A program made the position numbers and the translations under genes. From IMG/VR virus record IMGVR_UViG_3300042332_000965, positions 1 to 64,000 of that record: 64,000 nucleotides of DNA. One strand, given 5' to 3'. Each line of letters begins with the position of its first letter. The stretch's first letter is position 1. The DNA comes from a virus. Below the pieces are notes generated by a model. The model had not been told where the DNA came from. It made no database searches and saw only the letters and a list, made by a program, of their open reading frames with translations. Shown here piece by piece: positions 61,795 through 62,087 of this stretch.

Positions 61795-61942
61795 AAAAAA
61801 AAAACGCAGACGAGAAAAAGCGATACGGAAATTGTCGTGCTCTACCATTGAGCTACAGGCCGGTATTAACCGGCCCAGAGGGACTCGAACCCCCAACCAC
61901 GTCATTAAAAGTGAAGTAACCGTATCAATCGCATCGTCTGCG
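61795..61942 (-). ncRNA. yrlA: Y RNA (YrlA-like): permuted tRNA mimic on a Ro60-type stem
   Basis: Minus strand. A T-arm (GGGGG-TTCGAGT-CCCTC, 61878-61894) is followed by the acceptor-like stem TGGGCCGGT/ACCGGCCTG capped by TAAT, then a D-arm (GCTC-AATGGTA-GAGC, 61839-61853). That order is a circularly permuted tRNA. The ends pair in a long helix (CGCAGACGA with TCGTCTGCG; GATACGG with CCGTATC). Ten U's follow at 61804-61795, so the closing helix doubles as terminator. Known YrlA RNAs have this plan and bind Ro60, whose gene starts 24 nt downstream. Confidence 0.85.
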
Positions 61943-61951
61943 TTGGTTTTA

Positions 61952-62015
61952 GCCTTTGAGTACAGGCAACAGGGTTCTATTTATGCGAAGTAACCCTGTT
62001 TATCGCTTCAAAGGC
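61952..62015 (-). ncRNA. Y-RNA-type stem, second copy without tRNA domain
   Basis: Minus strand: outer stem GCCTTTGA/TCAAAGGC, internal loop starting AGCGATAA, inner stem ACAGGG/CCCTGT, and apical loop beginning TTACTTC. The same order and loop sequences appear in the tRNA-bearing copy and in the copy at 62024. The stem sequences differ, so structure is conserved rather than primary sequence. It is probably a Ro60-binding module. Confidence 0.65.
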
Positions 62016-62023
62016 AGTTTATA

Positions 62024-62087
62024 CTGCGAGATCAAATTCTGACGGTATTTTTCTAAACCTGAAGTAACCGTCAAAGTCGCTTCGCAG
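62024..62087 (-). ncRNA. Y-RNA-type stem, third copy without tRNA domain
   Basis: Minus strand: outer stem CTGCGA/TCGCAG, internal loop AGCGACTTT, inner stem GACGG/CCGTC, apical loop TTACTTCAGG. It is 64 nt long, like the neighbouring copy, and 8 nt away. A 7-bp hairpin GACCGGT-CTA-ACCGGTC (62097-62113) lies at the presumed 5' end of the transcript. Confidence 0.65.

What the first reader, a model, noticed from the sequence alone, without database searches (positions are those of the whole stretch)
61805..62087. Three tandem copies of a Y-RNA-like stem with conserved GCGA and TTACTTC loops
Three consecutive elements share the layout outer stem - (A/T)GCGA internal loop - inner stem ending GG - TTACTTC apical start, although stem sequences differ. 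Only the last carries the tRNA-like domain. GAAG and CTTC flanking the inner stem could also pair. This may be a multivalent Ro60 scaffold, which I have not seen described.
Basis: partly seen in the sequence, partly recalled or inferred. Interest (0 to 1): 0.8.

Follow-up and report, generated by a model that had tools for sequence, protein, structure and literature searches.

The report
Phage Ro60 gene's tandem Y-RNA array
Next to a virus gene for the RNA-binding protein Ro60 lie three linked Y-RNA-like hairpins, the last carrying a rearranged tRNA; such arrays are common beside phage and bacterial Ro60 genes, and some relatives carry the same hairpin inside an ordinary-order tRNA.

Summary
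On the minus strand, just 5' of a Ro60/TROVE gene (61771-60482), three units (62088-62023, 62015-61952, 61944-61803; 7-nt linkers) share outer stem, GCGA loop, inner stem and UUACUUC. A covariance model built without window sequence finds only units A and B in the 64 kb (E 7.6e-9, 6.4e-7). Unit C matches Rfam YrlA (38.7 bits, below the cut-off 69). All 14 model pairs covary. Of 232 non-redundant viral Ro60 loci besides the window, 141 have at least two strict motifs on the Ro60 strand, 74 at least three; on the opposite strand one has two. Bacterial Ro60 loci have arrays too. So this is a Y-RNA array, a known kind; one multivalent scaffold is possible but unshown. GAAG:CUUC pairing is not general. 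Beyond the finding: the tRNA-like modules often keep an anticodon arm (147 of 206 versus 6.7% of shuffles; window loop CUUUUAA), absent from Rfam's YrlA consensus, and some relatives, including crAss001-like phages, carry the module unpermuted, as an ordinary-order tRNA with the Y stem inserted before the anticodon arm. I found neither described in the open-access papers searched.

The parts
62023..62088 (-). Unit A: Y-RNA-like hairpin without tRNA domain; inner stem 62075-62067 with 62046-62038; UACUUC 62066-62061
   Evidence: R1 38.9 bits, E 7.6e-9
61952..62015 (-). Unit B: Y-RNA-like hairpin without tRNA domain; outer stem 62015-62008 with 61959-61952; UACUUC 61992-61987
   Evidence: R1 32.4 bits, E 6.4e-7
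61803..61944 (-). Unit C: YrlA-like RNA, 11-bp outer stem, inner stem, UACUUC 61918-61913, circularly permuted tRNA-like domain
   Evidence: (Rfam YrlA 38.7 bits, below gathering 69)
61900..61916 (-). Anticodon-arm-like hairpin of unit C, stem 4 of 5 pairs, loop CUUUUAA (anticodon-like UUU)
   Evidence: 11 extra bases relative to Rfam YrlA
61878..61894 (-). T arm of unit C (GGGGG UUCGAGU CCCUC)
61856..61877 (-). Acceptor-stem equivalent of unit C, closed as a hairpin (permuted)
   Evidence: two 7-nt strands, 8-nt loop
61839..61855 (-). D arm of unit C (UAGCUCAAUGGUAGAGC)
61795..61804 (-). Run of ten T directly after the outer stem of unit C: terminator-like; unusual among relatives
60482..61771 (-). 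Ro60/TROVE protein gene, 429 aa, starts 23 nt after the T run
   Evidence: Pfam TROVE E 1e-18; PDB profile matches

Best explanation
The locus is a Ro60-Y RNA operon of a tailed phage. The leader encodes three Y RNAs in tandem followed by the phage's Ro60. Shown by computation: shared structure, covariation, place beside Ro60, recurrence in other phages and bacteria. Inferred: Ro60 binds each stem through the paired region around the GCGA loop and the U-rich loop opposite it. The three units are made as one precursor and either stay linked or are cut in the 7-nt linkers. Unit C's tRNA-like domain, at the far end of the stem, recruits a tRNA-binding host factor, by analogy with the reported tethering of Ro60 to PNPase by Y RNA in Deinococcus. 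Units A and B give Ro60 a stem without that effector, so the array sets the ratio of effector-bearing to plain Ro60 RNPs during infection. The step from the tRNA-like domain to a particular partner is the least certain.
For: TROVE gene directly downstream. Model from other loci finds A and B only. 14 of 14 pairs with two-sided changes, 90.3% of cells paired versus 56.2% shuffled (those elements were chosen for pairing, so the next test matters more). Own downstream partner versus swapped partner, on motif hits chosen by sequence alone: stems at or below -22 in 171 of 286 versus 79 of 858, and 1 of 16 on the opposite strand. Strict motif 614 on the Ro60 strand versus 33 opposite in 313 loci, with no comparable bias for the 18 one-letter variants of the core. 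54 R1 matches at E up to 1, all on the Ro60 strand, in the 27 loci given to (4 of the 5 IMG/VR loci and 23 of the 24 named-phage Ro60 loci fetched). In Listeria phage CKA15 three very abundant ncRNAs lie within 2 kb upstream of an Rsr-like gene and the authors suggest Y RNAs (PMC12282133, passages).
Against: No expression, binding or processing data for this phage. Unit C is below Rfam's gathering score and weak with R1. Window units B and C read GCGAU and miss the strict motif of relatives. The one promoter-like match is no more than chance and lies inside unit A. 30 of 232 viral loci have no strict motif. Pfam TROVE was not found in Listeria phage P100, to which CKA15 is likened in its abstract, so that support rests on the authors' HHpred match.
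Confidence: 0.72

Rival explanations
1. A single multivalent scaffold: the three stems stay on one RNA and hold several Ro60 rings side by side.
For: 7-nt linkers, independent folding of the three units within the 311-nt RNA, 70 of 201 linkers in relatives at most 15 nt.
Against: 68 of 201 linkers exceed 100 nt, so tight packing is not conserved. No processing data.
Confidence: 0.3
2. Cis-acting leader: Ro60 binds its own leader, and the unit C outer stem plus ten T acts as a terminator that Ro60 stabilises, giving autoregulation.
For: 11-bp stem then ten T, with the start codon 23 nt further on.
Against: A T run follows the last element in 13 of 224 loci and internal elements in 4 of 201. In crAss001-like phages the array lies downstream of Ro60.
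Confidence: 0.15
3. tRNA decoy: the anticodon-bearing module soaks up host anticodon nucleases.
For: Anticodon arms in 147 of 206 modules at tRNA spacing versus 6.7% shuffled. Window loop CUUUUAA. PMC7790460 (passages) proposes the YrlA tRNA-like domain as a possible competitive inhibitor of an anticodon nuclease.
Against: Anticodon positions change fastest in closely similar modules (34-36: 0.34, 0.39, 0.24 against 0.04-0.15 in stems, 38 pairs), which fits plain lack of constraint. Units A and B lack the module. PMC7790460 detected no fragments of YrlA.
Confidence: 0.2
4. Permuted or intron-bearing tRNA genes that are processed into working tRNAs; the Y stem is only a processing signal.
For: Near-complete tRNA parts in permuted and unpermuted order; one unpermuted element is followed by CCA after the discriminator base (L103).
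Against: Two of three window units have no tRNA body. UACUUC and the Y stem are conserved in elements without one. Bacteria are not known to me to have the needed splicing enzyme.
Confidence: 0.05

Closest known systems
YrlA, bacterial Y RNA (Rfam RF02553; PDB 6CU1)
   Same: Paired stem joining the ends, circularly permuted tRNA-like domain with T arm, closed acceptor stem and D arm, gene beside Ro60.
   Different: Below the Rfam gathering score; has an anticodon-arm-like hairpin absent from the Rfam consensus positions; comes as the last of three units.
Y RNAs of Salmonella rsr-yrlBA-rtcBA (PMC7790460, passages)
   Same: More than one Y RNA beside Ro60.
   Different: I did not compare their sequences. 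The window array is 5' of Ro60 with 7-nt linkers. No RtcA or RtcB family showed among the 24 window proteins I scanned, which are not all its ORFs.
Candidate Y RNAs upstream of the Rsr-like gene of Listeria phage CKA15 (PMC12282133, passages)
   Same: Several ncRNAs 5' of a phage Ro60-like gene on the same strand.
   Different: Proposed there from expression and position; no structure is given in the passages I read.
Permuted tRNA genes of algae and archaea (recalled)
   Same: 3' part of the tRNA precedes the 5' part.
   Different: Here plain stems without tRNA recur in the same arrays, and the gene neighbour is Ro60.

Membership tests
Bacterial Y RNA (broad) | Encoded beside a Ro60 gene | tested here: met
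   TROVE gene 61771-60482
Bacterial Y RNA (broad) | Long stem with internal loop, structure conserved by covariation | tested here: met
Bacterial Y RNA (broad) | Conserved Ro60-binding sequence in the stem (recalled as GNCGAAN0-1G with a CUUG-like strand) | tested here: inconclusive
   Window has GCGAC, GCGAU, GCGAU; relatives mostly G[CT]G[ACT]AG. The recalled motif was not checked against its paper.
Bacterial Y RNA (broad) | Binds Ro60 | not testable with these tools
   needs a binding assay
YrlA RF02553 | Score at or above Rfam gathering 69 bits | tested here: not met
   38.7 bits for unit C; no listed match for A or B
YrlA RF02553 | Circularly permuted tRNA-like domain | tested here: met
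   unit C only
YrlA RF02553 | tRNA-type base modifications of the D and T loops | not testable with these tools
   needs RNA analysis
tRNA | Recognised as a tRNA gene | tested here: not met
   ARAGORN and Rfam at gathering score find only tRNA-Glu at 60289-60362 in the window

The most novel reading that the evidence does not exclude
In this Ro60 clade the Y RNA is a tRNA with a Ro60-binding stem inserted between the D arm and the anticodon arm (about position 26/27). The RNA exists in two circular permutations: the YrlA order (ends at the Y stem, acceptor closed) and an unpermuted order with a free acceptor stem, which could be matured like a tRNA. Plain array units are the same stem capped by a shrunken anticodon-arm hairpin. 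Phages such as crAss001 relatives would then make tRNA-Y chimeras that tether Ro60 to tRNA-handling enzymes.
Probability: 0.4. Interest if true: 0.8.

Novelty: new variant of a known kind. Interest (0 to 1): 0.58.

Why it matters
Phage Y RNAs are little studied. The arrays give many natural variants of a Ro60-binding stem with and without the effector domain, so the roles of stem and tRNA-like domain can be separated. The retained anticodon arm and the unpermuted forms would explain how a tRNA mimic came to be joined to a Ro60 stem, and make the suggested link of Ro60 to tRNA damage directly testable in phage infection. They also warn that some annotated phage tRNAs beside Ro60 genes are Y RNAs.

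Tried and rejected
GAAG:CUUC pseudoknot: not general. Terminator-based autoregulation as the general role: T run rare. DNA similarity of the region to phages: matches to 83 records, none covering 80% of the query; the listed ones are short and fall in the tRNA-like part of unit C. Listeria P100: TROVE family search found nothing at E up to 1; the stretch of it that I fetched (L192) holds no Ro60 gene and was left out of all counts. A relaxed motif (any base before ACTTC, block G[CT]G[ACT]) was too unspecific: elements at or below -22 were 658 versus 174 on the two strands. The full anticodon-arm test on plain units gives only 18 of 151 versus 2.1% shuffled, so most plain units have at best a shortened arm. 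In the tRNA-order test 151 of 324 modules fit neither order under my strict patterns, 4 fit both and 3 looked like ordinary tRNAs. Of the 19 unpermuted-type matches I do not count five of 149-231 nt (L187, L350, L251, L271, L272) as convincing; scrambled cores gave 1, 1 and 1 matches, the opposite strand 0.

Full report
WHAT IS THERE. The finding lies on the minus strand of a virus record of 66,395 bases. Read in that direction, three hairpin units are followed by a run of ten T and, 23 nt later, by the start of a 429-aa protein with a TROVE domain. A profile of this protein and eight relatives matches solved TROVE/Ro60 structures, including 1YVP and the Ro sixty-related protein 2NVO. The record also encodes terminase, portal, tape measure, DNA polymerase and helicase proteins, so it is a tailed phage.

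THE THREE UNITS. Unit ends are A 62088-62023, B 62015-61952 and C 61944-61803, linkers 7 and 7 nt. Each folds below all 200 dinucleotide shuffles, and they fold independently within the whole RNA. Model R1 was built from 34 short-loop elements of other Ro60 loci, none from the window. In the 64 kb, both strands, it finds A (38.9 bits, E 7.6e-9) and B (32.4 bits, E 6.4e-7) and nothing else up to E 10. Unit C, with its long insert, scores 11.6 bits without filters, but matches Rfam YrlA from first to last model position at 38.7 bits (gathering score 69).

STRUCTURE TESTS. In the 34-element alignment all 14 pairs show two-sided changes, and 90.3% of cells pair versus 56.2% after shuffling and 40-53% after sliding. 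Those elements had been chosen for pairing, so I also ran a test free of that choice. For 286 sequence-only motif hits on the Ro60 strand, stems with their own downstream sequence reached -22 in 171 cases, against 79 of 858 with downstream sequence swapped from other loci, and 1 of 16 for opposite-strand hits (the 203 loci still held duplicate contigs, but identical motif regions were counted once, and two hits of 288 and one of 17 too near a contig end were dropped). After removing overlapping loci, 313 remained of 350.

HOW COMMON. The strict motif G[CT]G[ACT]A-N3..17-UACUUC occurs 614 times on the Ro60 strand and 33 times on the other in the 313 loci. The 18 single-letter variants of UACUUC lie near parity, at most 3.6-fold with small counts, so the hexamer is strictly kept. 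Among 232 viral loci other than the window, 202 have at least one motif, 141 at least two and 74 at least three; on the opposite strand 23 have one or more and 1 has two. Among 80 bacterial loci the numbers are 60, 41 and 22 (sums are mine; most loci are the best 80 of each search, so not a random sample, and some bacterial contigs may be prophages). The window itself has one strict hit, since B and C read GCGAU. R1 gives 54 matches at E up to 1 in the 27 loci, all on the Ro60 strand. Arrays lie upstream of Ro60 in most loci that I read by eye and downstream in the crAss001 group.

THE tRNA-LIKE MODULE. In the alignment the window carries 11 extra bases between the UACUUC region and the T arm compared with Rfam YrlA. 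They belong to an anticodon-arm-like hairpin with loop CUUUUAA. In the 313 loci, 324 places have ACUUC followed by a T arm 12-32 nt on, against 6 on the opposite strand. The distance peaks at 18-19 nt, the spacing expected if the UUC begins tRNA position 27. At 17-20 nt, 147 of 206 have a stem of at least 4 of 5 pairs and U33, against 6.7% of shuffles. Anticodon-like triplets vary, GUU (28) and GCU (16) leading. A few of these places are ordinary tRNAs (3). In 38 independent pairs of similar modules the triplet changes most, which speaks against a fixed identity. U33 was a selection criterion there and says nothing.

TWO ORDERS. With strict patterns 151 of 324 modules are permuted like YrlA, the window included, 15 are unpermuted, 4 fit both, 3 look like ordinary tRNAs and 151 fit none. 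Unpermuted examples of 121-143 nt occur in crAss001-like phages (L016, L017, L019) and in L081, L103, L107 (two), L110, L111, L113, L116, L119, L137 and L180: acceptor strand, D arm, then the Y 3' strand, a short closed outer loop, the Y 5' strand with UACUUC, T arm, and the complementary acceptor strand. Their acceptor stems differ in sequence yet pair. Rfam's tRNA model matches eight of these 14 over its full length across 124-144 nt: L113, L116, L111, L081, L119 and L103 at gathering score (which covered 11 loci) and L017 and L019. The elements of L016, L110, L180, L137 and both of L107 were not matched in that way. ARAGORN reported none of those it was given. That YrlA is a circular permutation of tRNA is known (PMC11472068, passages). 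An unpermuted counterpart with the same stem I did not find in the papers I could search, but main Y RNA papers are not held.

MECHANISM. Best supported is a set of Ro60-binding Y RNAs made from one leader. Known biology gives the rest by analogy: Rsr tethered by Y RNA to PNPase in Deinococcus (PMC7790460 and PMC8394870, passages). A TROVE gene is among the early genes of crAss001 (PMC10136315, passage), and the CKA15 candidate RNAs are among the most abundant phage RNAs, so an early role in reshaping RNA metabolism is likely. Whether units stay joined is open. The window's terminator-like T run suggests that the array is made partly apart from the Ro60 message, but this is rare in relatives.

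VERDICT. A real and well-formed Y-RNA array, a known kind in outline, with a variant tRNA-like domain. The most surprising by-product is the anticodon arm and the unpermuted tRNA-Y form in relatives.

Noticed in passing
window 62200-62745, + strand: About 545 nt without a convincing gene, folding at -215 kcal/mol (z -4.8) and ending in a terminator-like hairpin. No credible Rfam match. A possible large structured noncoding RNA, divergent from the Y array.
   Followed up: partly
L017 4172-4314, L016 4056-4196, L019 4681-4821, L103 2228-2352, L081 4176-4302 and others: Ordinary-order tRNAs with a Y-type stem inserted between D arm and anticodon position.
   Followed up: yes
L008 2302-2376, L013 2253-2320, L009 1664-1731, L187 2204-2275: Features annotated as tRNA-Ser, -Thr, -Gln and -Arg overlap Y-RNA elements beside Ro60 and are probably misannotated (against 32, 92, 105).
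   Followed up: partly
window 60289-60362, - strand: tRNA-Glu (UUC) just after the Ro60 gene.
   Followed up: no
window 31999-33240 and 42837-44234, - strand: Two ORFs match successive parts of one DNA polymerase family (phrog_17, 551-821 and 836-1236), about 10 kb apart: a split polymerase.
   Followed up: no
window 62097-62113: Perfect 7-bp hairpin GACCGGT-CTA-ACCGGTC (+ strand reading) just upstream of unit A.
   Followed up: no
L017 3990-4780: crAss001 has its Y-type array downstream rather than upstream of Ro60.
   Followed up: partly
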